64,000 nucleotides of DNA from Clostridium sp. (lineage in GTDB: Bacteria; Bacillota; Clostridia; Clostridiales; Clostridiaceae), in assembly GCA_031292145.1 (NCBI GenBank), contig JARLHR010000043.1, positions 1 to 64,000 of the forward strand, written 5' to 3'. This document shows, one piece after another, positions 2,602 through 33,686 of this stretch. Numbering within the stretch: position 1 is the first letter of the stretch; the number at the start of each line of letters is the position of its first letter. A program made the position numbers and the translations under genes. Under the pieces are notes generated by a model. It ran no database searches. It was given only the letters and a program-made list of their open reading frames with translations, and had not been told where the DNA came from.

Positions 2602-2727
2602 ATGGCGGTAAAAATAATAAGTGCTACACATAATGAATTAGAGGGTTTTTTGATAAATGTGGAGGTGGATATATCTAAGGGATTGCCCGTGTTTAATATA
2701 GTAGGATACAATATCATGATGTTGTGA
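2602..2727 (+). pseudogene. comM: comM (YifB), 5' fragment cut by the island
   Basis: An ATG with a good AGAGGTG site opens a frame whose first 35 codons match the N-terminus of the ComM/YifB Mg-chelatase-like AAA+ protein, ending in KGLPVFNIVG. At 2707 the reading frame runs into island DNA and stops at TGA 2725-2727. The rest of the gene is at 32257-33686, 29.5 kb away. Joining the two at the shared 14-bp core gives GLPVFNIVGLPDTSVKEA, the expected uninterrupted ComM sequence. ComM promotes branch migration during natural transformation. Confidence 0.93.
2693..2706 (+). other. attL core
   Basis: The core reads TTAATATAGTAGGA and is shared exactly with 32257-32270. Left of it is comM sequence and right of it is island sequence. 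Serine integrases cross over at a central dinucleotide within such cores. Confidence 0.88.
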
Positions 2728-12374: not shown

Positions 12375-12993
12375 TGATACTCCTCCTTTCTTTTTTAATA
12401 ATATATTATAAGCAACATGTATTGCTTTATAACGTTCAGTAATCTTAACAAGGTTTTATTAAGAGATACAATAAACTCGATTCTAAGAACTACACCAACT
12501 TCGATTAGATGTAAAAAATCTTCTATACTTTATTATTTGCAAGTGACTATAAAAAATATATTATCCTTGAAATATATTACAAATTTTTCTCTAAATTAAA
12601 GTAAAGTTAATCTTTCAGAGCTTGTACTTATCTCTTAATAAAAATTATAAACTCTTTTTTTATGAAAATTATTCGATTTTTATTCCAAAATTATTCCACT
12701 AAATCAGTATTGAAGTAGTTTAGCTAGTGATATATTTTATGATTAAAATGCTAAAGCTCCTTTATATATAAGCAATTTAAAATGAATTTGTTTTTTTGAA
12801 AATCCACTTAGACACTCTTTGTTTGTTTAGACCATACTCTAAAACAATAGATTGATAAATTTAGGAATGGCTTAACAAGTGTTTATTTAGAGTTGATTTT
12901 AAATTTATAAACATTTGTTTGTAAAAGTTGTTGCATTCAAATAAACAAATTGGTATAATATAGATAAGAAGTTAAGTAAGGGAAGTATTGAGA
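12375..12993 (+). promoter_or_regulatory. Upstream region of the resolvase: promoter plus res-like repeats
   Basis: A textbook sigma-A promoter is present: TTGCAT 12931-12936, a 17-bp spacer and TATAAT 12954-12959. Upstream lie several imperfect inverted repeats built on TGTTTAT and ATAAACA, for example within about 12820-12950 (TTGTTTGTTTAGA facing TCTAAAACAA; TGTTTAT facing ATAAACA). Their position directly upstream of a small serine resolvase fits a res or operator site. The first 440 bases of the gap show no credible gene. Confidence 0.55.
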
Positions 12994-13563
12994 ATGAATA
13001 TAGGATATATAAGAGTAAGTACAGTTGAACAAAATGAGGCAAGACAAATTGAGGCATTAAAAAAATACAACCTTGATAAAACATTTACTGAAAAGGTAGG
13101 TGCTAAAGATACAAATAGACCAGAGTTAAAAGCAATGTTAGAATTTGCAAGAGAAGGTGATACAGTTTATATACATTCATTTGATAGACTTGCAAGAAGT
13201 ACATCTGATTTATTGAATTTAGTAGAACAATTACAAGCAAAGGGGATACACCTAGTAAGTAATAAAGAGAATATAGATTCAAGTACAGCAACAGGAAAGT
13301 TAATGCTAACAATGATAGGTGCAATTAATACATTTGAACGTGAGAATATGTTAGAAAGACAAAGAGAAGGTATCGCAATAGCAAAAGAACAAGGGAAATT
13401 CAAAGGCAGAAAAGCAATAGAGTATCCAAGCAATTGGAAAGATGTATACAAACAATGGAAGAGTAGAGAAATAACAAGCAATGGAGCAATGGAACAACTA
13501 GGACTTAAAAGAAATACATTCTATAAGCTAGTAAAAGAATATGAAGAAGGTCAAGAGGTTTAA
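12994..13563 (+). CDS. Serine resolvase/invertase, Tn3/Sin type
   Basis: This 189-aa protein has the small serine recombinase layout. The catalytic serine is in MNIGYIRVST, the helper arginines in HSFDRLARS, and the long E helix and HTH follow (IGAINTFERENMLERQREG, then a C-terminal HTH ending NTFYKLVKEY). Such enzymes resolve cointegrates or plasmid multimers or invert DNA at local sites. I chose ATG 12994 over TTG 12988 because it begins the conserved N-terminus. The upstream repeats are likely its binding sites. It is distinct from the large integrase at 30531. Confidence 0.92.
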   Translation: MNIGYIRVSTVEQNEARQIEALKKYNLDKTFTEKVGAKDTNRPELKAMLEFAREGDTVYIHSFDRLARSTSDLLNLVEQLQAKGIHLVSNKENIDSSTATGKLMLTMIGAINTFERENMLERQREGIAIAKEQGKFKGRKAIEYPSNWKDVYKQWKSREITSNGAMEQLGLKRNTFYKLVKEYEEGQEV

Positions 13564-15700: not shown

Positions 15701-15862
15701 AATTAAAATGAACATATTTTTGTTTATATTGTGTAAAAGAAAATGTAAAATAATAAAATTCTAGAAAATAAGTTTTTTATTGTAATAGATAATATATTGC
15801 ATTGATTATGATAAAATAGAAATAACATACATTTAAAAAAATATCTATAAGGGATGATAAGT

Positions 15863-18800
15863 ATGAGAGATTATATTAATACGAGCATAAAAAAGATAAG
15901 ACAAGCAATATACAATAATAAATTAGTTATTTTTGTAGGAGCAGGGGTATCAGCAAATTCAAAATGTCCATCTTGGGGAGAATTAATAGATAGATTTTCA
16001 GATGAGTTAGGAATACCGCAATCCGAAAGGAAGAAGGAATCAACAGAATATTTTCTTAAAATTCCTCAATATTATTATATAGAAAGAGGGCAAAAGCAAT
16101 ATTTTGATATTATTAATAATGTTTTTTGTAATCCAAACAATATCCCTGTGCCAAACGCAATCAATAAAAGAATATTTGAACTAAATCCGTCAATAGTAGT
16201 GACAACAAACTTTGATGAATTATTAGAAAAAACAATAGAATCAGATGCAAGATATTATACAGTTATTAAGCAAGATGAAGATTTACCTTATAGTCTCAAT
16301 GATAATTTAATAATAAAAATGCACGGGGATGTTAAATTAAAAAATATAGTATTAAAAGAAGAAGATTATTTAAATTATTCGAATAACTTCCCACTGATTG
16401 AAAATTATTTAAAAGGATTATTCTCAACTAAAACCATTTTATTTGTTGGTTATTCAGCCAACGACCCAGATTTCAAGTTGATGTTCAATTGGGTAAAAGA
16501 AAAATTAAATGGACATTTTCAACCAGCATATCTGTTGGAAACTGAAAAAAATCAAGAACGCTTAGAATTTAATTATTATAAAGATAGGGGAATTAACATT
16601 CTTTATTATAAAGAAATACAAGATGATATAGCTAAATTGCTTGGAGAAAGTTTTGAGAGTAGTTTAAATGATGATAGAGGAAAACATCTAGAAATATTTT
16701 TAAGGTATATAAGAGATTATAATGAAAAGTTAAGTTTTGTGAAAGATATTTATAATAGATTAAAAGTATTTGAAGGTTTGAATGCAATAATGCCGAAAGA
16801 TATACTAATGCAGTTAAACGAAAAATATACATGTTTTAATATTGAGTATAAAAGTTTAATATTCAATACGCATGAAGACAAAAGTGACTATCTAAATGAA
16901 TTTAAAGAAAAGATAGAGGAAGGTTTAAAATTAGAAAGTAATAAGAATCGAGAAGAATTTTTAAAAAAAATCATACAAGAAGACAAGAATATATTAAGAA
17001 TATTTGATATATTACATAAGGCTTCAATAAGCGAAATTTTAGTGGGGAATTTAGGAGATTATAAAAAGGTAGAAATAGCGGATTATATACAATTTAATGA
17101 TGATTTAGAGAAAGATGAATTTGAAGAATTATTAAAAGCATGCGATTTGGAAAAACTGGAGAAAATGTTGCATTATTATTTAATTAGCACACCTATAAAT
17201 GGTAATGAATATTTATATCTAAGAAAAGCATATTTTTTATATAAAATTGGAAAGTACCTCGAGGCATATACAATATTAAGAAATGTTTCAGTATATTGCT
17301 ATAGTAGTAAAAAATATTTATTGTGGTATATTTCATTATTTAATATGAAGAATTTATATGGAAAAATATTTGAAGAGAAATATAATTTAGCAAAAAAGTA
17401 TTTCGAGTCAAATTATAATGAAGTTTTAAATGAAATAAAAGAAATAGATTTAGAAAAAGAGGTAAATAAAATTCCATATCAATACATTCAAGAAAAGTTA
17501 AAGTATGTTAGTAAAAGAATTTCAATTGACGTATTTAATCAAAAAATACAACATGTGCAAGAACTAACTGGCAAAATTAAGGAAGATAAAATTTTGATAG
17601 AGAGAGGAGGTACTTCATACAATCAGAATATCGCAAAATTATATCAAGAAGTTAAAGATATGACTAATTTTATACATAGAAATTATCTTATGGTATCGCA
17701 TTTGAATAGTATATCAAAAATATTTTCAATATTTATTGAGGGGATAATTGTTAATTATAGCGTAAAAAAGAAAAATAGTTCAATAGAGATTTTTGGAACA
17801 ACACCAAAAGTTGAAGAATTTGATGATTTTGATATTGAAATGATGTTATTATATACAATTAATAAAGAATTAATAAGCTATATTGATGGAAATAATATTA
17901 TTGAATTAAATGTTAATAGAAATGGAATAGAGTATCTTTTAACTTGTCTAGATAACATAGTCCAATTAAACAGGTCAGAAATTGTAAAAATGGACAACTT
18001 ACTTAATAATATTATTACAATATTATCATATTGTGATTTATCTAAGCAAGAGTTTGAAATGATAATAGAAAAATTTATAGTGCTTTTAAAAAAGAATGGA
18101 TTAGTGATGTTAAGCTTTGAGAATATAAATATGTTTATAGTTAGAATATATAAAAAAGATAAAGAACGTATAGAATTAAACGCATTAATTTTATTTTTAA
18201 AGCAATATCTTATTATGTATAACAACAATGAACTAAATGGATTTGCGAGAGAAATACTTAAAAGTACAATATTATTTATAAATATATGTTACATAAGTAA
18301 TGAAAAAAGCATGAGTATTGATAATGAGATTACTATTTTTATTTCTAATTATTTAAGCGAGATAAAAAATAGGTCTTATGAAAATAATTATGTTGATGCA
18401 GAAGAAATCATTCCCAATTTATTAATACCTGTATTCAATATTTTAGGTGATAAAGATAATATAAAGAAGAGTATATTAGACACAATAGAAGAAATAGTAT
18501 TATATTTTAAAAAGTTAGAAAAATTTAATATATATTTAAAAATAGAATATTATTTACTTTTTAACGATATGATTAAAATCAATGATGAAGAAAAGAATAG
18601 GTTTGTTGAAAATATTAATTGTTCTTTTAGAGAAAAATTAGATTGTGAAAAAAAAGCTAAATATAATTCTAATAATTCTAGTGAAATGTATATGAAAATG
18701 TTGCTTAATCTAATTTTAGCTAAGAAAATAAACTATAGTTCAATAAAAGAGTTTTGTAAAGATATTAAAAATGAAAACAATATGTTTAGTTTTTTTGTAG

Positions 18801-19012
18801 AGCCAGATACTTTTGATTATAGGAAGTTTGATGCAGAGTGGATAAGGTTTATAAGTGATGAAGCTATAGAAGAACTATCTAAAAATATAAATGTAGCCAA
18901 TAAAATAACGCCTGTGTTATTGGAAAAATTGAATGAAGAGAATATAGGTAAGGAATATAAAAGAAAGATAATATTGTTAATAAAGAAAGTTTTTTTAATA
19001 GAGGTTAAATAG
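15863..19012 (+). CDS. SIR2-domain NADase-like protein, probable anti-phage effector (DSR-like)
   Basis: This 1049-aa protein has an N-terminal SIR2-like domain with FVGAGVSANS near residues 24-33, the TTNFD motif (Asn near 116) and KMHGDV (His near 154). FVGYSANDPDF follows, completing the nucleotide pocket. The Asn-to-His spacing is 38 residues. The remaining 780 or so residues are helical and unrecognised, as in the large defence-associated sirtuins (DSR1/DSR2) that deplete NAD+ on phage infection. ATG 15863 is preferred over 15854 because AAGGG sits 8 bases before it. It is a stand-alone gene: no HerA, TIR or STAND partner adjoins it. The activity is inferred. Confidence 0.82.
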   Translation: MRDYINTSIKKIRQAIYNNKLVIFVGAGVSANSKCPSWGELIDRFSDELGIPQSERKKESTEYFLKIPQYYYIERGQKQYFDIINNVFCNPNNIPVPNAINKRIFELNPSIVVTTNFDELLEKTIESDARYYTVIKQDEDLPYSLNDNLIIKMHGDVKLKNIVLKEEDYLNYSNNFPLIENYLKGLFSTKTILFVGYSANDPDFKLMFNWVKEKLNGHFQPAYLLETEKNQERLEFNYYKDRGINILYYKEIQDDIAKLLGESFESSLNDDRGKHLEIFLRYIRDYNEKLSFVKDIYNRLKVFEGLNAIMPKDILMQLNEKYTCFNIEYKSLIFNTHEDKSDYLNEFKEKIEEGLKLESNKNREEFLKKIIQEDKNILRIFDILHKASISEILVGNLGDYKKVEIADYIQFNDDLEKDEFEELLKACDLEKLEKMLHYYLISTPINGNEYLYLRKAYFLYKIGKYLEAYTILRNVSVYCYSSKKYLLWYISLFNMKNLYGKIFEEKYNLAKKYFESNYNEVLNEIKEIDLEKEVNKIPYQYIQEKLKYVSKRISIDVFNQKIQHVQELTGKIKEDKILIERGGTSYNQNIAKLYQEVKDMTNFIHRNYLMVSHLNSISKIFSIFIEGIIVNYSVKKKNSSIEIFGTTPKVEEFDDFDIEMMLLYTINKELISYIDGNNIIELNVNRNGIEYLLTCLDNIVQLNRSEIVKMDNLLNNIITILSYCDLSKQEFEMIIEKFIVLLKKNGLVMLSFENINMFIVRIYKKDKERIELNALILFLKQYLIMYNNNELNGFAREILKSTILFINICYISNEKSMSIDNEITIFISNYLSEIKNRSYENNYVDAEEIIPNLLIPVFNILGDKDNIKKSILDTIEEIVLYFKKLEKFNIYLKIEYYLLFNDMIKINDEEKNRFVENINCSFREKLDCEKKAKYNSNNSSEMYMKMLLNLILAKKINYSSIKEFCKDIKNENNMFSFFVEPDTFDYRKFDAEWIRFISDEAIEELSKNINVANKITPVLLEKLNEENIGKEYKRKIILLIKKVFLIEVK

Positions 19013-23725: not shown

Positions 23726-23734
23726 TGATATAAT
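23726..23734 (+). promoter_or_regulatory. Extended -10 promoter of the four-gene operon
   Basis: TGATATAAT is a perfect extended -10 element (TGnTATAAT). No good -35 is visible. It lies about 50 bases before the histone-fold gene. Confidence 0.5.
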
Positions 23735-23782
23735 AAATATATTAAATAAAAATTTACTTATAATTCATTATATGGAGGAAAT

Positions 23783-24229
23783 ATGGGGCAATTAAAATTA
23801 GATTTAAATGATACCACAAATATTAACTATAAAGATGTAGATAATGATGTTTTAAATTTATTAGATGACGAGATAGAAGAAGAAGAAGCAAATTTATTGT
23901 ATACAAATAGATTAAAAAAAATGATAAAGGATATTGCAGAATTTGACAATCTATTAGGAGTGCAAGCTGGAGAAATTGCTTTATCAAGATTTCAAGAAAA
24001 CAGCAAGTATTTAATAGCAATGTTAGTGATACAAACATTAGATGAATTGCAAAATACAGGACGAAAAAAGATTAAACCTAATGATGTTGATGATGCTTTA
24101 GATAAAATTCTGTCTAAAGCAAGTGGTATAGATACAGCCTTAGAAATATTAAATAAAGATATAGAAACGCTTAAGGGATTAAATAAAAATACGTCAATAA
24201 CTAAGACAAGCAAATTTATTAATAGATAG
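23783..24229 (+). CDS. Histone-fold-like small protein, first gene of the operon
   Basis: This 148-aa protein has a very acidic N-terminus (residues 19-37). Residues 42-111 then resemble a histone fold: a helix near 42-52, a long helix near 66-92 (RFQENSKYLIAMLVIQTLDE), a loop GRKKIK at 93-98 and a short helix PNDVDDALDKIL at 99-110. The GRKxIKxxD(V/I) loop closely resembles archaeal histones (GRKTIKAEDI). The first helix-loop is about five residues longer than in histones. TGGAGG precedes the ATG. DNA binding is not implied; the acidic N-terminus suggests protein contacts. The fold assignment is by eye. Confidence 0.6.
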   Translation: MGQLKLDLNDTTNINYKDVDNDVLNLLDDEIEEEEANLLYTNRLKKMIKDIAEFDNLLGVQAGEIALSRFQENSKYLIAMLVIQTLDELQNTGRKKIKPNDVDDALDKILSKASGIDTALEILNKDIETLKGLNKNTSITKTSKFINR

Positions 24230-24238
24230 GTGAGTGTT

Positions 24239-25597
24239 ATGTTAGAACAAAAATTGTTTTTTACAAGAAATGGTGAATATACTGTTTGGGAAAAAATACA
24301 ATTTCTTAAAGAAGCTAGTTTAAAAGAAATTATTAATTATATTTATGAAACTGGATGTAGAATTGAATCAATGCAAAATAACTCATTAAGAAAGGGCATC
24401 ATATATAAGTTGTGCACTTCTAAGGAATATGAGTTAATTAAAAAAGATATACTGGAATTAATAGACAAGCATTTTTATAAAGATAATGCTGTAGATAAAG
24501 CTGATTTTAATGGATTACTTTTTAAAATAGATTTTAGCTATATGGATATAAGTAATGCATATAAAGCATTACAAAAATTAAATGAAATAAAGGAAGAATA
24601 TGATATAGATAATCCAAAATTCTATATATTTTTAAGAAAAAATGAAGAATGCATAGACATAAGACTTAACACGACTAAAATAAATGAGTATAAAGATAAT
24701 TTCAATGAGCAATTTATGAACACAGAGCTAAGGTTATATTTTAAATTAGGTTTAATATTGATGACAGATTACAGTGAGTATACTCATATAAAATCTATAA
24801 AAACAAAATTAATAGATGACATACAGAAGTTGCTAACTAATACAAGTGTTAGACTTGAACCCTATAAGTTAAGTGATATGACATTAAGAGTTTTACTAAA
24901 GAAAAGCAAAAAATACTCATCTAAGTTTAAATTTTCCATAGATGGTATCATGGATGTTGATTTTAATGTTTCAGAAAATATAAATGACGACCCGTTAATG
25001 TATGATAGTTTAAGGGAATTTTATGATAAACATTTAATATCAGTAATAAAAATATCAATGAGTGATAATGAAGATAAATATATAACTGTTGATGGAGAAA
25101 AAGGTAAGTTAATATCTAGGTCTAAAAACATGGAAGTAAAAGATATTAATGAATTTATTGAATTACTTAGTTATGTAATAAAATATGATTATTTAAATAA
25201 TAATTATATGAAAAACATTAAGAATATGGCAAAGGATAAGTTAATTGGGCCAACAACAAATAAAATGGCACAAATAGAAAGTCTATATTTAGAAATAGAA
25301 AATAATATAAAAAAGAATGTGGATGAAGACCCAGATAATGCAGTAATAATAAGAAATACATTTTTCTATTGTCTAATAAAGGGGGTAATGGTGAATCAAT
25401 ACAATGAAATGGATTTTAATTTAAATGATGAAATAGTTTCAACATTAGCGAAAGTATTATGTTTAGATAAAAAATTGATTAATAGTTTATTTAATTATGT
25501 AATAAATTTAGCAAGAAATCCTGATAATAATGATTTATTAGAAACATTTGATAAATTTATTAATTCAAAAGGTGAATTCAATGTTAGTAAAATATGA
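24239..25597 (+). CDS. Unknown 452-aa protein, second gene of the operon
   Basis: I do not recognise any domain. The protein is mixed alpha/beta and soluble, with no cysteine cluster, signal peptide or membrane helix. The start ATG 24239 lies 7 bases after AGGTG; a GTG at 24230 is possible. The gene begins 9 bases after the histone-fold gene ends, and its last 17 bases overlap the next gene's start, so it is surely co-translated. It is large enough to carry the sensing or enzymatic role of the set, but no catalytic motif is evident. Confidence 0.6.
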   Translation: MLEQKLFFTRNGEYTVWEKIQFLKEASLKEIINYIYETGCRIESMQNNSLRKGIIYKLCTSKEYELIKKDILELIDKHFYKDNAVDKADFNGLLFKIDFSYMDISNAYKALQKLNEIKEEYDIDNPKFYIFLRKNEECIDIRLNTTKINEYKDNFNEQFMNTELRLYFKLGLILMTDYSEYTHIKSIKTKLIDDIQKLLTNTSVRLEPYKLSDMTLRVLLKKSKKYSSKFKFSIDGIMDVDFNVSENINDDPLMYDSLREFYDKHLISVIKISMSDNEDKYITVDGEKGKLISRSKNMEVKDINEFIELLSYVIKYDYLNNNYMKNIKNMAKDKLIGPTTNKMAQIESLYLEIENNIKKNVDEDPDNAVIIRNTFFYCLIKGVMVNQYNEMDFNLNDEIVSTLAKVLCLDKKLINSLFNYVINLARNPDNNDLLETFDKFINSKGEFNVSKI

Positions 25598-26672
25598 ATA
25601 TGAACTTTTATCTTATATTGCTACAAAAGGAACAAATAAAGTAAACTTTGATTTAGCGGTTTCGATAAAACGGATTAATTTAGAATTAGATGAAGATATA
25701 CATATATATTTAGAAAATTTAAAATTAAAAGGTTTAATTACAATTGAAGAGAATACAATAACTATAAAATCAGAGAAATGGGTTAAGTATTTTGTAGAAA
25801 AACTTAATGAAGAATTTAAGAAGAATAAGTTGGAAATAATATGTGATTTCAAGCAAGAAAAATTTGCTATAGAGTTTAGTGCTAATGGTTCAATTAAAAA
25901 TTTTAATTTAATTTTGAATGAAAATAATATTTCGCCTAATAAATATGAAGAAGATTCAATTTTTATGTGTATGCCAAATTATTATGAGGATAGAATATTT
26001 TGGTTGGACTTACTTAATGATGTGAATACATTATTATTGTTTTCATCTTATATCTCAAATGAAATAAGCAATATTAATAAGGAAAGATATAGGAAGATAG
26101 TAGAATTTGATGGAATTAATGATGCTTATGTAAGTGAAATATTTAGTAGCTCAATAAAAGAGTATTTCGAGAAAATATCAAAAAATATTATAGAATTTCC
26201 ACAAGAATATAATGATATTGTAAGAAAAATACTTAAAAGTGAAAATCATAGTTATTATGGAGTGGAATTTGATAATGAAATTCTATTAATATTAAAAAAA
26301 AATAGAGAGATAATATTTTTAACTTATAGAAATAAGGAATTGGTCTATTCAGAACAAATTAATAATGAGATAAATAAATTAAATGATAAGATTATCAATA
26401 AACTAAGTCAATATAGAAAGTTACTTATGTTTAGGGAAAATAATATAATAGATAATTCATTAAAACTAATAAGTAATTTAGCTGTTTTCTTTGTACCATT
26501 TACAATGATAATTAATATATTGGGTTTTTTTAATTTAAATTTGGATAGTGTTAAAAATTATAAATGGCTATTAATTATAATAATGGCAGTATTAGCGTTT
26601 ATTCAAGGAGGAATAATATATCTCATATATATCCCGGCTATTAGAATGAGTAGATTTAAATGGAAGTTATAG
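25581..26672 (+). CDS. Protein with CorA-like C-terminal membrane hairpin, third gene of the operon
   Basis: This 363-aa protein starts at ATG 25581, 8 bases after AAAGG, inside the end of the previous gene. Residues 1-65 look like a winged helix. A mixed-fold middle leads into a long helix (about 255-295). Two transmembrane helices follow at 296-317 and 329-351. The segment NLAVFFVPFTMIINILGFFN closely follows the CorA/ZntB pattern (IFLPLTFIAGIYGMN), with the GMN pore signature changed to GFF. Ion transport is therefore doubtful. A membrane effector is an inference. I assign only the C-terminal resemblance with some confidence. Confidence 0.6.
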   Translation: MLVKYEYELLSYIATKGTNKVNFDLAVSIKRINLELDEDIHIYLENLKLKGLITIEENTITIKSEKWVKYFVEKLNEEFKKNKLEIICDFKQEKFAIEFSANGSIKNFNLILNENNISPNKYEEDSIFMCMPNYYEDRIFWLDLLNDVNTLLLFSSYISNEISNINKERYRKIVEFDGINDAYVSEIFSSSIKEYFEKISKNIIEFPQEYNDIVRKILKSENHSYYGVEFDNEILLILKKNREIIFLTYRNKELVYSEQINNEINKLNDKIINKLSQYRKLLMFRENNIIDNSLKLISNLAVFFVPFTMIINILGFFNLNLDSVKNYKWLLIIIMAVLAFIQGGIIYLIYIPAIRMSRFKWKL

Positions 26673-26692
26673 TATTAAAATAGGAGGTTTTT

Positions 26693-27679
26693 ATGGGGAT
26701 AAAAATGAAGGAAGCTAGAAAAATTTCTGATAAAAAAATTATTAAAATAAAAGATGCAACTGATAAAATGAGAAAAAATAAGGAATTAAAATGTATAACG
26801 AATGAATGTGATGCTAAAATAACTTGGGCAAAACGTCATATGATAAATAGTGAAATAGAAAATAAATTTTTTAGATTGTTGCAAGGAGAAACTCATAGCA
26901 ATAAATGTAAATATAATACATCTGGAAGAGTTGAAATTTTAGCAAAATCATCAGATAAAAATATATTAAAGCAGCTAGAGAACAATTGCTATGAATTTAG
27001 ATTAAATTTAATAGTGGAAAATTTAAAAGAAGTAAGCATAAAAAAAGAAGACGAAGATGAAAATTCAGAACAAAAGAGAAAAGATAATTTAGTTCAAAAG
27101 AGTTATCGGAAAAATGGACAGGCAAAACCTTATTTGTCTTTAATGAGAGATGTTATGATATTAAGAAGTGAAGTTGAAGAAGATGAAGAACTGAAGAAAC
27201 ATATTAAACTTACATTTGACAAAAAGAAAGTAGATTGGAGCAAGTTTTTTTACGATGAAGGAAGTGAAGAGAAAATATATGATTACATAAAAAGAAATGG
27301 ATATAAGTCATACAATAAAACTACTATTAGGCTGGAGCATCCTATATGCATTGAAGGTGCGGTAGCTAAAAAAATTATAATTAATCAAGATACAAAAGTA
27401 TATTTTATTAATTATAAATTATCAAGGTTTATAGAACCAAATCAAGATAATGAAGTTATATTATATAAAGTAAGTTTAATGACTAAAGATAAGAAAATAG
27501 CAGAAAATTTGAATAAAGGTATAGAACTGAAAAAAATAGTACATCTAATTACATATTCGATACCATATGCAGACATTTCTCAAAAAGAATATATTAAGAA
27601 TGATGTGAAAATGATAATTAGGGAGATAAAAGGATGGATTAATTATGAAGAACAAATATATATAGTAGAAGACAATTAA
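26693..27679 (+). CDS. Cys/His-rich protein, fourth gene of the operon
   Basis: This 328-aa protein starts 20 bases after the CorA-like gene, behind TAGGAGG. A probable zinc site near the N-terminus is formed by Cys34, Cys39, His68 and Cys72 (CITNEC, then GETHSNKC). This resembles the N-terminal zinc domain of CoiA-like proteins, but no nuclease motif can be confirmed. The remainder is mixed alpha/beta and charged. A terminator follows 100 bases later, closing the operon. Confidence 0.6.
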   Translation: MGIKMKEARKISDKKIIKIKDATDKMRKNKELKCITNECDAKITWAKRHMINSEIENKFFRLLQGETHSNKCKYNTSGRVEILAKSSDKNILKQLENNCYEFRLNLIVENLKEVSIKKEDEDENSEQKRKDNLVQKSYRKNGQAKPYLSLMRDVMILRSEVEEDEELKKHIKLTFDKKKVDWSKFFYDEGSEEKIYDYIKRNGYKSYNKTTIRLEHPICIEGAVAKKIIINQDTKVYFINYKLSRFIEPNQDNEVILYKVSLMTKDKKIAENLNKGIELKKIVHLITYSIPYADISQKEYIKNDVKMIIREIKGWINYEEQIYIVEDN

Positions 27680-27777
27680 GAAAGAAGAGATTTATTTAGA
27701 GTACATTCTATATAGGTAACTGAAATAGTATTAAGAATATTTGTTTAAAATCTTTTAAATAAGTGCTTTCAATAGTT

Positions 27778-27810
27778 TAGAGCATAAAGAAATGCTCTAG
27801 GTCATTTTTT
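27778..27810 (+). terminator. Terminator of the four-gene operon
   Basis: TAGAGCAT and ATGCTCTA form a perfect 8-bp stem with a six-base loop. A T run follows a few bases later. Confidence 0.75.
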
Positions 27811-28116: not shown

Positions 28117-28217
28117 AAAAATTCAATAATCTGTATAACTAATAGAAGTTCTGTAATTCGATTATTTAAATCTGCATATATATGGGTATAGAACTAATTT
28201 TATTTAGAGGAACTTTT

Positions 28218-29324
28218 ATGGGCATAAATGATTATTTTACAAAAGAATACAGTGTGAAAAGCTTAATCGAAGGAACTACGATAGAGAATGCAATATGTTT
28301 CTTAATTGATAATTCTTTAGATGCGGCAGAAAAAGCAAATAAAAGTATTAATATAGAAATTGTTTTAGATAATAATACTTTTAGAATTCAAGATAATGGC
28401 ATAGGTATATCATACAAAGAAGCACAAGAAAGCCTCTTAAAAATAGGAGAAAAAAATTCGTTTACAGATTTATACGGTCAAGGTTTGAAAAAAGCAATAC
28501 TTACCATGGGTAAAAAAATAAATATAAAATCGACTAGAGGTACAGGAGTGACAAACATAAATTTAAGAATATTGGGTGATGATGAAAAAGATTTATGGAA
28601 ACCAAGCTTAAACTACAGCCGTACCAAAAGTAAAGAGGGATTCATAGTTGAAATAACTGAATTTACAAATGAAATGAATAAATTTATAATGGATAACATG
28701 AATTTGAATAAATTTGTAAAATTAAAGAATAAACTCTCATATAAATATAGATATATTTTACAATCGGGATTAGCAACTATAAAGTTCAATGAAGATTACT
28801 TAGATGCTAAGTTTATAGATGCTGACAAGGTAGATGAGAAAAGTACAATAATAGATGAATTAAATGTTACTGTCAAGATATTCAAGAACATAAAAGAAAA
28901 ATCTTTAAATGGAATAGATTTTATTGTAAATAATAGATGTGTAGTTGAGAAAGAAAAAAGTAAAAAAATAGATTGGAACTTAAAAATAAGAAAAAAGGGA
29001 CATAGCTACGTAAAATTTTTTGGAGAAGTAATTGTAGAAACCGATGATATAGAAAAGTTGGGAGTAAGCCCATCAAAAAATAAAATTAATTTTACAACTA
29101 CTCAGTTTCAGAAAATACTAGATTATATGTTTAGCGCTATAGAAGAGAATAGATTAGCTTATACAAAGCCAACAATATCAGTACAATTTGATATAGAAGT
29201 TGAAGATTATATTGAATGGAAAGAAATTTTAGAAGAACAGGGTAGTAAATTTGAGTGTGCTAAAGAGGTAATAGAACATTTATATCAATTAGGAGTGAAT
29301 AAAATAAGAGCAAATAAAGATTAA
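28218..29324 (+). CDS. GHKL ATPase (MORC/MutL/Hsp90-type fold)
   Basis: This 368-aa protein begins at ATG 28218 behind AGAGGA; the frame is open upstream. The ATP-binding fold is clear: the N box ENAICFLIDNSLDAA at about 23-37, DNGIG at 59-63 and GQGLKKA at 87-93. A middle S5-like domain and a helical tail follow. Such ATPases dimerise on ATP. In bacteria, MORC/MutL-like members occur in restriction and anti-phage systems. There is no MutL endonuclease motif and no fused nuclease. It lies about 540 bp after the four-gene operon behind its own terminators, so joint function is only suggested. Confidence 0.8.
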   Translation: MGINDYFTKEYSVKSLIEGTTIENAICFLIDNSLDAAEKANKSINIEIVLDNNTFRIQDNGIGISYKEAQESLLKIGEKNSFTDLYGQGLKKAILTMGKKINIKSTRGTGVTNINLRILGDDEKDLWKPSLNYSRTKSKEGFIVEITEFTNEMNKFIMDNMNLNKFVKLKNKLSYKYRYILQSGLATIKFNEDYLDAKFIDADKVDEKSTIIDELNVTVKIFKNIKEKSLNGIDFIVNNRCVVEKEKSKKIDWNLKIRKKGHSYVKFFGEVIVETDDIEKLGVSPSKNKINFTTTQFQKILDYMFSAIEENRLAYTKPTISVQFDIEVEDYIEWKEILEEQGSKFECAKEVIEHLYQLGVNKIRANKD

Positions 29325-30530: not shown

Positions 30531-32198
30531 ATGAGTAAAAAATTAATCAAAGCTGTTTATTATACACGTGTTAGTACCAATAAAGAGGAACAAGAGCAAA
30601 GCTTTGAAGCACAAGAAGCATATTTTAAAGAACTTCTAAGTAAAGAGAATGGTTATGAATTAGTTGCTGGGTATTGTGAAAAAGGGGTGAGTGGTACAAA
30701 ACTTTCTAAAAGACCAGAGTTCAACAGAATGTTAGAAGATGCAGGATTAAGAAAAGTTATTAACAAAGCTACACCTCAAGAAGTAAGAAAGAAATTTATA
30801 AGTACAGACTATGTGCTAACGGAAAAAGAACCAGAGTTCAAAATGATATTTGTTAAGGATAATAGTAGGCTTGCCCGTAATACTGATATTGGAGGAATAT
30901 TAAAAAAGCTGAAAGATAAAGGGGTATATGTATATTTTTGCGACTTAAATAGAAGTAACGAACATGATAGTGATGATATGCTTTTAAATATGCTTTTTAG
31001 TTTGGCACAACAGGAAAGTGTAGACAAGAGTACAAAAGTTAGATTTGGAGCATTACAAAGTGCAAAAAATGGAAAGATACGTTGTGGAAATCAGTTGTAT
31101 GGATACACATATAATAAGGAAGAAAATTCTCTGAGGATTATTGAAAAAGAGGCTAATATAGTTAAATTAATATATCAATTAAGAGAACAAGGTAATGGTA
31201 CTAGAAAAGTATGTAATTATTTGAAGGAGCAAGGAGTTACTACTAGAAGTGGAGTAGATTTTAGACCGAATGTAGTAAGTAGAATGTTGCAAAATCCTAC
31301 TTACACAGGAAAATTAGTTAGAAATAAGTTTGATTGTAATATGATAGGTGAAACTGGAGGACAGAAACAAAAGCCTAGAGAGGAATGGATTATAGATGAT
31401 ACGGATAAAGTAGATAAAATAATAGATGAAGAAGTTTTCGAAAAGGTTCAAGAATTAATAAATGAAAATATTGATAAACTTGGGGGCATTAAGAAAGGTA
31501 AGTATCTAAGTAGAAGTGAATTTGCAGAGAAAATAATTTGTGGTAAGTGCGGGAAACATTATGTAAGAAATAGTGATAAATTGGCTGATGGTAGTAAAAA
31601 AATATTTTATAATTGTGCTACTAAGAAGCAGAAAGGTGTAAAAGTGTGTGATAGTAGGAATATATCTTCGGAAGAGTTAGAAGATAAAATAAAGAATAAT
31701 TTATCTAGAGGGAAATATAAAGAATTAGTAAATTTCCACATTAATATAGCTATAGAATTTATAAAGCAAGATAAAGCTAAATTATATAAGGATGATTCAC
31801 ATGTTGAAGAAATAGAGAAAATTAAAAAACAAATCGAAAATTATAAAAATATGTTAAATACATTGCTGGATATATTATTTAAAGATAATTCTGATAGTGC
31901 TATGGAAGTATTTAATACAAAAAAATCTGAGATAGAAAATCATGTAAGAGTATTAGAAGACAGATTAAAAGAGTTAACATTATCAGATAAAGAAAGGGAA
32001 GCGAAAGAAAAATTCATAAACGATAATATGGCAATACTTCGACAATATGCAGAAGCCATTCCAGAAGAGATAAGCCGAGAAGAATTCTTAAAAGACCATT
32101 TGGTTTATTTTGAGGTAAATAGAAAAGGAGAGTTGGGTTTATTTACACATGCTAATAGAATAGTAGGAGAAATACAGAATATTTTAAAAGGCGAATAA
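30531..32198 (+). CDS. Large serine recombinase, the island's integrase
   Basis: This 555-aa protein has the large serine integrase layout. The N-terminal catalytic domain has Ser15 (YYTRVST) and DNSRLARN. The recombinase domain includes GNQLYGYTYN and VVSRMLQNPTYTGKLVRN. A zinc ribbon follows (CGKCGKHYVRN, then CATKKQKGVKVCD). It ends in a coiled-coil region (about 420-490). AAAAGGAG precedes the ATG. Its gene ends 58 bp before the attR core, the usual place for the integrase of such islands. It is expected to join the comM target site with the island's end. It appears intact, so excision is possible. Confidence 0.95.
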   Translation: MSKKLIKAVYYTRVSTNKEEQEQSFEAQEAYFKELLSKENGYELVAGYCEKGVSGTKLSKRPEFNRMLEDAGLRKVINKATPQEVRKKFISTDYVLTEKEPEFKMIFVKDNSRLARNTDIGGILKKLKDKGVYVYFCDLNRSNEHDSDDMLLNMLFSLAQQESVDKSTKVRFGALQSAKNGKIRCGNQLYGYTYNKEENSLRIIEKEANIVKLIYQLREQGNGTRKVCNYLKEQGVTTRSGVDFRPNVVSRMLQNPTYTGKLVRNKFDCNMIGETGGQKQKPREEWIIDDTDKVDKIIDEEVFEKVQELINENIDKLGGIKKGKYLSRSEFAEKIICGKCGKHYVRNSDKLADGSKKIFYNCATKKQKGVKVCDSRNISSEELEDKIKNNLSRGKYKELVNFHINIAIEFIKQDKAKLYKDDSHVEEIEKIKKQIENYKNMLNTLLDILFKDNSDSAMEVFNTKKSEIENHVRVLEDRLKELTLSDKEREAKEKFINDNMAILRQYAEAIPEEISREEFLKDHLVYFEVNRKGELGLFTHANRIVGEIQNILKGE

Positions 32199-32237: not shown

Positions 32238-33686
32238 ATGATGCTGTCCTTTACTATTAATATAGTAGGACTTCCTGACACTTCGGTTAAGGAAGCAAAG
32301 GAAAGAGTTAGAGCTGCAATTATAAATTGTGGGTATGAATTTCCATTAGGCAGGATTACCATTAACTTAGCTCCAGCAGATGTTAGGAAAATAGGATCAT
32401 TATTAGATTTACCTATTGCACTTGGAATTCTTATGGAATCTAACCAAATTTTAAGAAAGAGTATGGATGATTATATAGTATTTGGCGAGTTATCTTTATT
32501 TGGCGAATTAAAAGGAATAAAAGGCACAATACCAATAATAATTGAAGGAGCTCGACAAAATATTAACAAGTTTATATTTCCGTATGAGAATTTAGAAGAA
32601 ACATACTATTTTAAAGCTGGAGAATACTATCCATTAAGGAATTTAAAAGAGGTGATCTCTTTTATAACATATGAAGATATGCTTCCTTATGAAGGAAGCA
32701 ATGACATAAACGAAGACTCGGAGAATAAATTGTTGGATTATGGTGATATTATAGGGCAGTATTCATCTAAAAGGGCACTGGAAATAGCAGCGGCCGGGAA
32801 GCATAATATTGTTTTATACGGAGAACCAGGATGTGGAAAAACTATGCTTGCAAAAGCTTTAATATCGATATTACCTTCTTTATCGAAGGAAGAATTATTA
32901 GAAGTTGCTAAAATTTATAGTGCATGTGGCCTTATACATAAGGATCTGCATCTAAAAAGACCATTTAGATCACCGCATCATACTACAACAAAATTAGCGT
33001 TAATAGGTGGTGGGAAAGAAATAAAACCGGGAGAAATAACACTTGCCCATAATGGTGTTCTATTTTTAGATGAAATGCTTGAATTTAAAAAGGAATCTTT
33101 AGAATCCTTGAGAGAACCCCTTGAAGAGAAGTGCGTAAATATAACTAGAATCAGTGGCAGCCATATAATGCCATCAGATTTTTTGTTAATTGGTGCATTT
33201 AATCCAGTAGAAAATAATGAAGATAAGGATTTTAATGATAACAAATATTATTATAATACCAGATTAAATAAATATTCTAATAAATTTTCAAGTGCTTTGT
33301 TAGATAGAATTGATATTTTAAATTATGTTCCGAGGCTTAATTATGATCAGATTAAAAAAGAAAAAGATACATACGACTCAAAGGTTATGAAAGAAAATGT
33401 ATTAAGAGCTATAAGAATTCAAAAAGAAAGATTTAAAGATACAGGATATAAATATAATTCTGACATAAAAGGAAAAGATGTTTTTGAAATATGCAGAGTA
33501 GATAATGGATGCACAAAGATTTTAGAGCACTATTATAATACATCTAATGTATCATTAAGAGGTTACGGAAAAGTAATAAAGCTTGCAAGAACAATAGCAG
33601 ATATAGAAAATGAAGTAGATATATTAGAGGGACATATTTTGGAAGCTTTTAGTTATAGAAAAAATATTAATGGAGAAATTATATAG
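32238..33686 (+). pseudogene. comM: comM (YifB), 3' fragment with island-derived start
   Basis: The frame carries nearly all of ComM: the remainder of the N-terminal S5-like domain, then AAA+ Mg-chelatase motifs GEPGCGKT at residues 195-202 and GVLFLDEM, and the C-terminal domain to residue 482. Its first codons (MMLSFT) come from the island; comM proper begins at NIVG. The natural first 31 residues are missing, so it is probably non-functional, although a shortened protein could be made. No good ribosome site precedes 32238. It reads in the same direction as the integrase, 39 bp downstream. Confidence 0.9.
32257..32270 (+). other. attR core
   Basis: TTAATATAGTAGGA is identical to the attL core at 2693-2706. 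Everything to the right is comM. Confidence 0.88.

What the first reader, a model, noticed from the sequence alone, without database searches (positions are those of the whole stretch)
23726..27810. Compact four-gene operon of unknown type: candidate undescribed defence or conflict system
Four genes with 9, -17 and 20 bp junctions share one extended -10 promoter and one terminator. They encode a histone-fold-like protein, a 452-aa unknown, a protein with a CorA-like membrane hairpin, and a probable zinc protein. I know of no described system with this set. It sits in an island that also holds a SIR2 effector and a GHKL ATPase. A membrane protein next to soluble unknowns fits a sensor plus membrane-damaging effector, but this is inference.
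Basis: partly seen in the sequence, partly recalled or inferred. Interest (0 to 1): 0.82.

Follow-up and report, generated by a model that had tools for sequence, protein, structure and literature searches.

The report
Histone-type operon on a mobile element
Three of the four genes look like a rarely described bacterial histone operon of unknown function, here carried by a mobile DNA element, and the fourth resembles a separate gene that phages carry at a site known for defence genes.

Summary
The four genes, their 9, -17 and 20 bp junctions, the extended -10 box and a terminator-like hairpin are present. They lie in an element of about 29.6 kb that splits comM. Genes 1-3 match one in order and layout: the "RdgC histone" operon of Schwab et al. 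2024 (histone, RdgC-like protein, winged-helix transmembrane protein; some Bacillus and Halobacteria; function unknown). Sequence support is uneven. The histone motif is suggestive (best of 463 frames, but 7.1 bits; 2 of 1000 shuffles as good). The membrane hairpin of gene 3 resembles CorA without its GMN motif. Gene 2 showed no RdgC signal. Structure prediction, the decisive test, was switched off. Gene 4 looks independent: its relatives stand without genes 1-3, and in 8 of 8 phage or viral loci lie between tail genes G and FI, where P2 carries fun(Z), in a published defence hotspot. Genes 1-3 are very rare: one partial relative of gene 3 was found, none of genes 1-2. Most likely: a DNA-binding, membrane-tethered complex as mobile-element cargo, plus an accessory gene. 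A defence role is plausible, not shown.

The parts
2693..2706 (.). left junction repeat TTAATATAGTAGGA at the end of the 5' piece of comM (2602-2706)
   Evidence: 14-bp match to 32257-32270; 35-codon piece read
23726..23734 (+). extended -10 box TGaTATAAT, putative promoter
   Evidence: sequence; promoter-like sites in the region are not above chance
23783..24229 (+). P0001, histone-fold-like protein, 148 aa; acidic N-tail, GRKKIKPNDVDDAL motif, C-terminal extension
24239..25597 (+). P0002, 452-aa orphan; RdgC-like by position and size only
25581..26672 (+). P0003, 363 aa; putative winged helix at the N-terminus (my reading), CorA-like two-helix hairpin at the C-terminus
   Evidence: one relative in G289
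26693..27679 (+). P0004, phrog_7195-like protein with a Cys/His cluster; relatives at the G-FI site of P2-like phages
27775..27802 (+). terminator-like hairpin
30531..32198 (+). large serine recombinase of the element
   Evidence: Resolvase, Recombinase and Zn_ribbon_recom matches
32257..32270 (.). right junction repeat, start of the 3' piece of comM (to 33686)

Best explanation
Genes 1-3 are most likely a clostridial member of the RdgC-histone operon described by Schwab et al. 2024, carried as cargo of a serine-recombinase element that splits comM. Proposed working, inferred and not shown: P0001 forms a DNA-bridging histone multimer; P0002 clamps DNA like RdgC; P0003 binds DNA or its partners through its N-terminal domain and anchors the complex in the membrane through a CorA-type hairpin. 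Foreign or replicating DNA would be bridged and held at the membrane, which would hinder its replication or recombination. Gene 4 is an independent accessory gene on the same transcript, of a Cys/His-cluster family that in P2-like phages occupies the fun(Z) site; it probably acts alone. My estimates: identity of the three-gene module 0.7; a DNA and membrane complex, given that identity, 0.6; a role against foreign DNA or phage 0.35. The confidence below is for identity plus the 3+1 division.
For: The published operon is histone gene first, then an RdgC-like protein with two extra domains, then a TM protein with a winged helix, two unknown domains and a TM domain (PMC11390915 section 9); order, sizes and the C-terminal TM domain agree. 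P0001 ranks first of 463 frames for a histone profile, 2 of 1000 shuffles as high, and beats 100 of 100 shuffles in hhalign. The P0003 tail matches only CorA in the PDB (7 of 7 matches at E<=10). P0004 relatives occur without genes 1-3 in 13 of 13 fetched loci. The G289 relative of P0003 has no P0004 relative in the 9 kb fetched. comM is split with a 14-bp repeat at both ends.
Against: P0002 shows no sequence signal to RdgC: 79 of 100 shuffles score as high. The histone score is weak (7.1 bits, E 0.18; hhalign probability 3.29%) and PF00808 does not list P0001 in this genome at E<=10. P0001 also has sub-threshold matches to other families (MAG0865_DivIVA E 0.0008 at 19.5 bits against a cut-off of 55; DUF7141 E 0.0088). 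No winged-helix match was found for the P0003 N-terminus. No published member could be fetched for direct comparison. The four genes share one apparent transcript, which favours coupling of gene 4.
Confidence: 0.6

Rival explanations
1. Abortive-infection system: P0001 and P0002 sense DNA (phage DNA or recombination intermediates) and open the P0003 CorA-type channel, so that the infected cell stalls or dies.
For: CorA-like hairpin in P0003; SIR2 and GHKL genes in the same element; CorA-family membrane effectors act in type III CRISPR defence (PMC12255297, abstract and passages).
Against: GMN is replaced by GFFN and no CorA Pfam match appears at E<=10; the G289 relative shows no CorA match; no PADLOC match; no phage test exists.
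Confidence: 0.2
2. Element housekeeping: the three proteins organise, silence or partition the mobile element or its DNA, without any defence role.
For: Position inside an integrated element; histones and RdgC are DNA-organising or recombination proteins (PMC11390915).
Against: Very rare even in the same family of genomes (P0002: own only, 1 of 206), which is unusual for a core element function; a membrane hairpin is not needed for silencing.
Confidence: 0.3
3. One undescribed four-gene system, with P0004 as a necessary nuclease-like or nucleic-acid-binding partner and no relation to RdgC histones.
For: One apparent promoter and terminator for four genes; similar GC3 in the four genes, 0.165-0.177; no RdgC signal in P0002.
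Against: Layout fits the published three-gene operon; P0004 relatives stand without genes 1-3 in 13 of 13 fetched loci.
Confidence: 0.15

Closest known systems
RdgC-histone operon (Schwab et al. 2024, Nat Commun 15:7950, PMC11390915)
   Same: Histone-like gene first, a larger soluble protein second, a TM protein with C-terminal membrane domain third; acidic tail and a basic putative alpha1 in the histone.
   Different: Published from certain Bacillus and Halobacteria; here a Clostridium-type genome, as mobile-element cargo, with a fourth gene behind it. RdgC fold and winged helix not verified.
CorA channels and CorA-family effectors of type III CRISPR
   Same: The C-terminal hairpin of P0003 aligns with the CorA hairpin.
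   Different: GFFN in place of GMN (the role of GMN is recalled), no CorA Pfam match, other N-terminal domains. CRISPR genes were not searched for in the window.
phrog_7195 family, Wphi orf44 at the fun(Z) site of P2-like phages
   Same: P0004 matches the family at E 1.3e-12 over residues 13-201 and shares its Cys/His cluster.
   Different: Relatives stand alone in the fetched loci; here the gene closes a four-gene operon. No function is published that I saw, and no PADLOC model matches the 5 aligned members.

Membership tests
RdgC-histone operon | gene order: histone first, then RdgC-like protein, then TM protein | tested here: met
   order and sizes of P0001-P0003 against PMC11390915 section 9; met for layout, the identities are separate rows
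RdgC-histone operon | histone fold in gene 1 | tested here: inconclusive
   rank 1 of 463 frames, 7.1 bits, 2 of 1000 shuffles as high; hhalign above 100 of 100 shuffles but probability 3.29%; PF00808 does not list it
RdgC-histone operon | long C-terminal helix forming a tetrameric coiled coil | not testable with these tools
   structure prediction switched off; 39 residues follow the motif
RdgC-histone operon | positively charged alpha1 face | tested here: inconclusive
   residues 41-56 hold 4 K/R and 3 D/E; the placing of alpha1 is by eye
RdgC-histone operon | RdgC-like fold in gene 2 | tested here: inconclusive
   no sequence signal to five RdgC proteins, 79 of 100 shuffles as high; the published pair shares only 18% identity, so a sequence test is nearly blind
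RdgC-histone operon | winged helix at the N-terminus of gene 3 | tested here: inconclusive
   no winged-helix match in the PDB for residues 1-86; one weak match to 1ygm, E 0.059
RdgC-histone operon | C-terminal transmembrane domain in gene 3 | tested here: met
   two hydrophobic stretches, 293-356
CorA (PF01544) | match to the family model | tested here: not met
   no CorA model at E<=10 for P0003; no CorA chain at E<=10 with the A1 profile
CorA (PF01544) | two-helix hairpin with GMN motif | tested here: not met
   hairpin aligns with CorA in 7 of 7 PDB matches, but the loop reads GFFN
phrog_7195 | match to the family model | tested here: met
   E 1.3e-12, 48.6 bits, profile positions 12-201 of 299
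known anti-phage systems (PADLOC-DB 2.0.0) | match of any of the four proteins to one of 5027 models | tested here: not met
   0 families at E<=1 for P0001-P0004 and for the 5 members of the P0004 alignment

The most novel reading that the evidence does not exclude
A bacterial histone serves immunity: a histone and an RdgC-like clamp recognise foreign DNA and gate a CorA-derived membrane pore, a chromatin-based abortive-infection system carried by a mobile element. It would give the published RdgC-histone operons of Bacillus and haloarchaea a role.
Probability: 0.15. Interest if true: 0.88.

Novelty: new member of a known kind. Interest (0 to 1): 0.52.

Why it matters
RdgC-histone operons are described in one survey without a function; two searches of the held library found no other paper on them. 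The same layout as cargo of a mobile element, with a CorA-like hairpin in the membrane protein and SIR2 and GHKL neighbours, turns an unexplained chromatin curiosity into a testable conflict hypothesis. It also points to a gene family (orf44 of Wphi) at a P2 defence hotspot, present in 116 of 5426 complete E. coli genomes.

Tried and rejected
Conservation of genes 1-3 could not be shown. P0002 matched only itself in 206 genomes of the family (1 of 206). In 391 genomes of the class it had four weak matches besides its own (E 8.6e-4 to 8.7e-3); I inspected one of the four (L023, an unrelated 817-aa open frame). P0003 had four matches besides its own in 391 class genomes: G289 is real (E 4.5e-36); the other three (E 0.003-0.005) lie, by my reading, in a 188-aa membrane protein, in a frame antisense to a regulator gene, and in a glycosidase-like protein. 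The A1 profile of P0003 found only its own genome in 398 phylum genomes and only G289 in the 14 genomes of G289's family. P0002 and P0003 had no match in plasmids or phages and none in viral contigs; in genome contigs P0002 had none and the A1 profile only the G289 contig. The contig scans use short peptide patterns and see close relatives mainly. P0001 had no match in plasmids or viral contigs nor in five chosen genomes; it was not searched in phages, in genome contigs or in the family sample. In G289, P0002 and P0001 had no match at E<=1. A weak P0002 match in G529 (L015, E 0.0376; 7e-4 in the small set) lies in an oxidoreductase-like frame.

Rejected: DUF7463 as a link to haloarchaeal histones (weak match in P0001, E 0.032); the H. 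volcanii control did not ring. Rejected: a shared MerR module between the window and the G169 locus (weak match, E 0.006). Led nowhere: Rfam, no match at gathering scores in 2500-32400; inverted repeats at the element ends, none; a sample of 39 same-phylum genomes for a Bacilli 16S pattern, 0 of 39, so Bacillus relatives could not be reached. No empty comM site was examined.

Full report
What is there. Between about 2707 and 32270 lies an inserted element. comM is split into a 5' piece at 2602-2706 (35 codons) and a 3' piece from 32259 whose ChlI domain begins at profile position 13 of 121. The junctions share a 14-bp repeat, TTAATATAGTAGGA, at 2693-2706 and 32257-32270. A large serine recombinase, 30531-32198, sits beside the right junction. 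No empty site in a relative was examined.

The operon. Four genes with junctions of 9, -17 and 20 bp, an extended -10 box and a terminator-like hairpin. The promoter is a reading only, because promoter-like sites are no denser than chance (35 against 48.1). The third-position GC of the four genes is alike (0.165-0.177), so composition does not set gene 4 apart.

P0001. A profile of four archaeal histones gives it the best score of 463 frames from the window and five fetched loci, but only 7.1 bits (E 0.18); in a second run its score was reached by 2 of 1000 shuffles, one of them higher at 9.2 bits. hhalign scored 18.13, above 100 of 100 shuffles (maximum 17.59), over residues 65-109, including GRKKIKPNDVDDALDKI against GRKTIKAEDIELAVRRF, although its own probability is 3.29%. 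The general histone model PF00808 did not list P0001 among its three matches in this genome at E<=10. Other sub-threshold matches exist: MAG0865_DivIVA, E 0.0008, 19.5 bits against a cut-off of 55, and DUF7141, E 0.0088. The N-tail is acidic (12 D/E, 2 K/R in residues 1-40) and the putative alpha1, residues 41-56, holds 4 K/R and 3 D/E.

P0002. An orphan: no match in Pfam, PADLOC or NCBIfam at E<=1 and only chance-level PHROGs, best E 0.042. Against five RdgC proteins hhalign gave no signal; 79 of 100 shuffles scored as high.

P0003. Two hydrophobic stretches near the C-terminus. The last 106 residues matched 7 PDB sequences at E<=10, 7 of 7 CorA over the hairpin, best E 0.36. Against one CorA hairpin, chosen because it was the best match, the local score of 69 was reached by 4, 2, 0 and 0 of 2000 shuffles under four schemes, three of which keep local composition. 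The loop has GFFN where CorA has GMN. Against this: the two-sequence profile of the whole protein listed no CorA chain, no CorA Pfam model matched, and the only relative, in G289, showed no CorA match. That relative is 33% identical, lies at a contig end with stops upstream of the open part, and has no relative of P0004, P0001 or P0002 in the 9 kb fetched.

P0004. It matches phrog_7195 at E 1.3e-12. Four relatives at 24-29% identity share C34, C39 and C72, with a His three or four residues before the third Cys. In Wphi, the P2 record OU784549 and six IMG/VR contigs the gene lies between tail genes G and FI, eight of eight. In reference P2 this place holds fun(Z), annotated as blocking T5. Vassallo et al. 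2022 (PMC9519451; section 8 read in full; passages) call the locus with fun a second defence-enriched locus holding three of their systems. I did not establish whether orf44 is one of them; no PADLOC model matches it. In E. coli the gene is in 116 of 5426 genomes, of which I inspected one context. Relatives on pTHAF3_a, pNY3A and in G169 also stand without genes 1-3. In all, 13 fetched loci hold a relative (two of them, L003 and L014, are the same G169 gene) and none of the 13 has a match to P0001, P0002 or P0003 at E<=0.01.

What it is. Schwab et al. 2024 (PMC11390915; section 9 read in full; other passages) describe RdgC histones in certain Bacillus and Halobacteria: histone gene always first, then an RdgC-like protein with two extra domains, then a TM protein with a winged helix, two unknown domains and a TM domain, no function assigned. 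Genes 1-3 fit this in order, size and topology. Two library searches for other papers on the module found none; a third, on histone folds and phage defence, I saw only as a listing, and it named none to me. A 2026 paper on archaeal histones does not mention RdgC (find). The fit is an architectural argument; the fold test could not be run.

How it may work. Shown: gene order, hydrophobic helices, mobile context, family of P0004. Inferred: DNA bridging by P0001 (Schwab et al. showed bridging for a coiled-coil histone, HMfC), DNA clamping by P0002, membrane anchoring by P0003, action on foreign DNA. A CorA-type pore that stalls or kills the infected cell is the bolder reading; CorA-family effectors with that role are described for type III CRISPR (PMC12255297, abstract and passages).

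Verdict. 'Of unknown type' is probably wrong for genes 1-3, and 'four-gene system' is probably wrong for gene 4. What remains of interest is a histone operon of unknown function turning up as mobile-element cargo beside conflict-type genes.

Noticed in passing
window 15854-19012 +: 1052-aa protein with an N-terminal SIR2 domain resembling ThsA of Thoeris (PADLOC E 2e-34 over residues 7-236); the rest has no clear match.
   Followed up: partly
window 28182-29324 +: 380-aa stand-alone GHKL ATPase (HATPase_c_3, E 7.9e-12) with a weak MutL-like C-terminal match, E 0.048.
   Followed up: no
window 2707-32270: Element of about 29.6 kb in comM with a 14-bp junction repeat; it also carries a helicase, a BspA-type LRR protein and choline-binding-repeat proteins.
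   Followed up: partly
window 12988-13563 and L014 7781-8437: Small serine resolvases 38% identical in this element and beside the P0004 relative in G169.
   Followed up: partly
L007 (CP079755.1, pNY3A): Plasmid labelled Klebsiella grimontii, yet its genes round the P0004 relative (YueH family, M4 metallopeptidase) look Bacillus-like to me; the label may be wrong.
   Followed up: no
L013 1-1024 (G289): The only P0003 relative is partial: contig end and stops upstream of its open part.
   Followed up: partly
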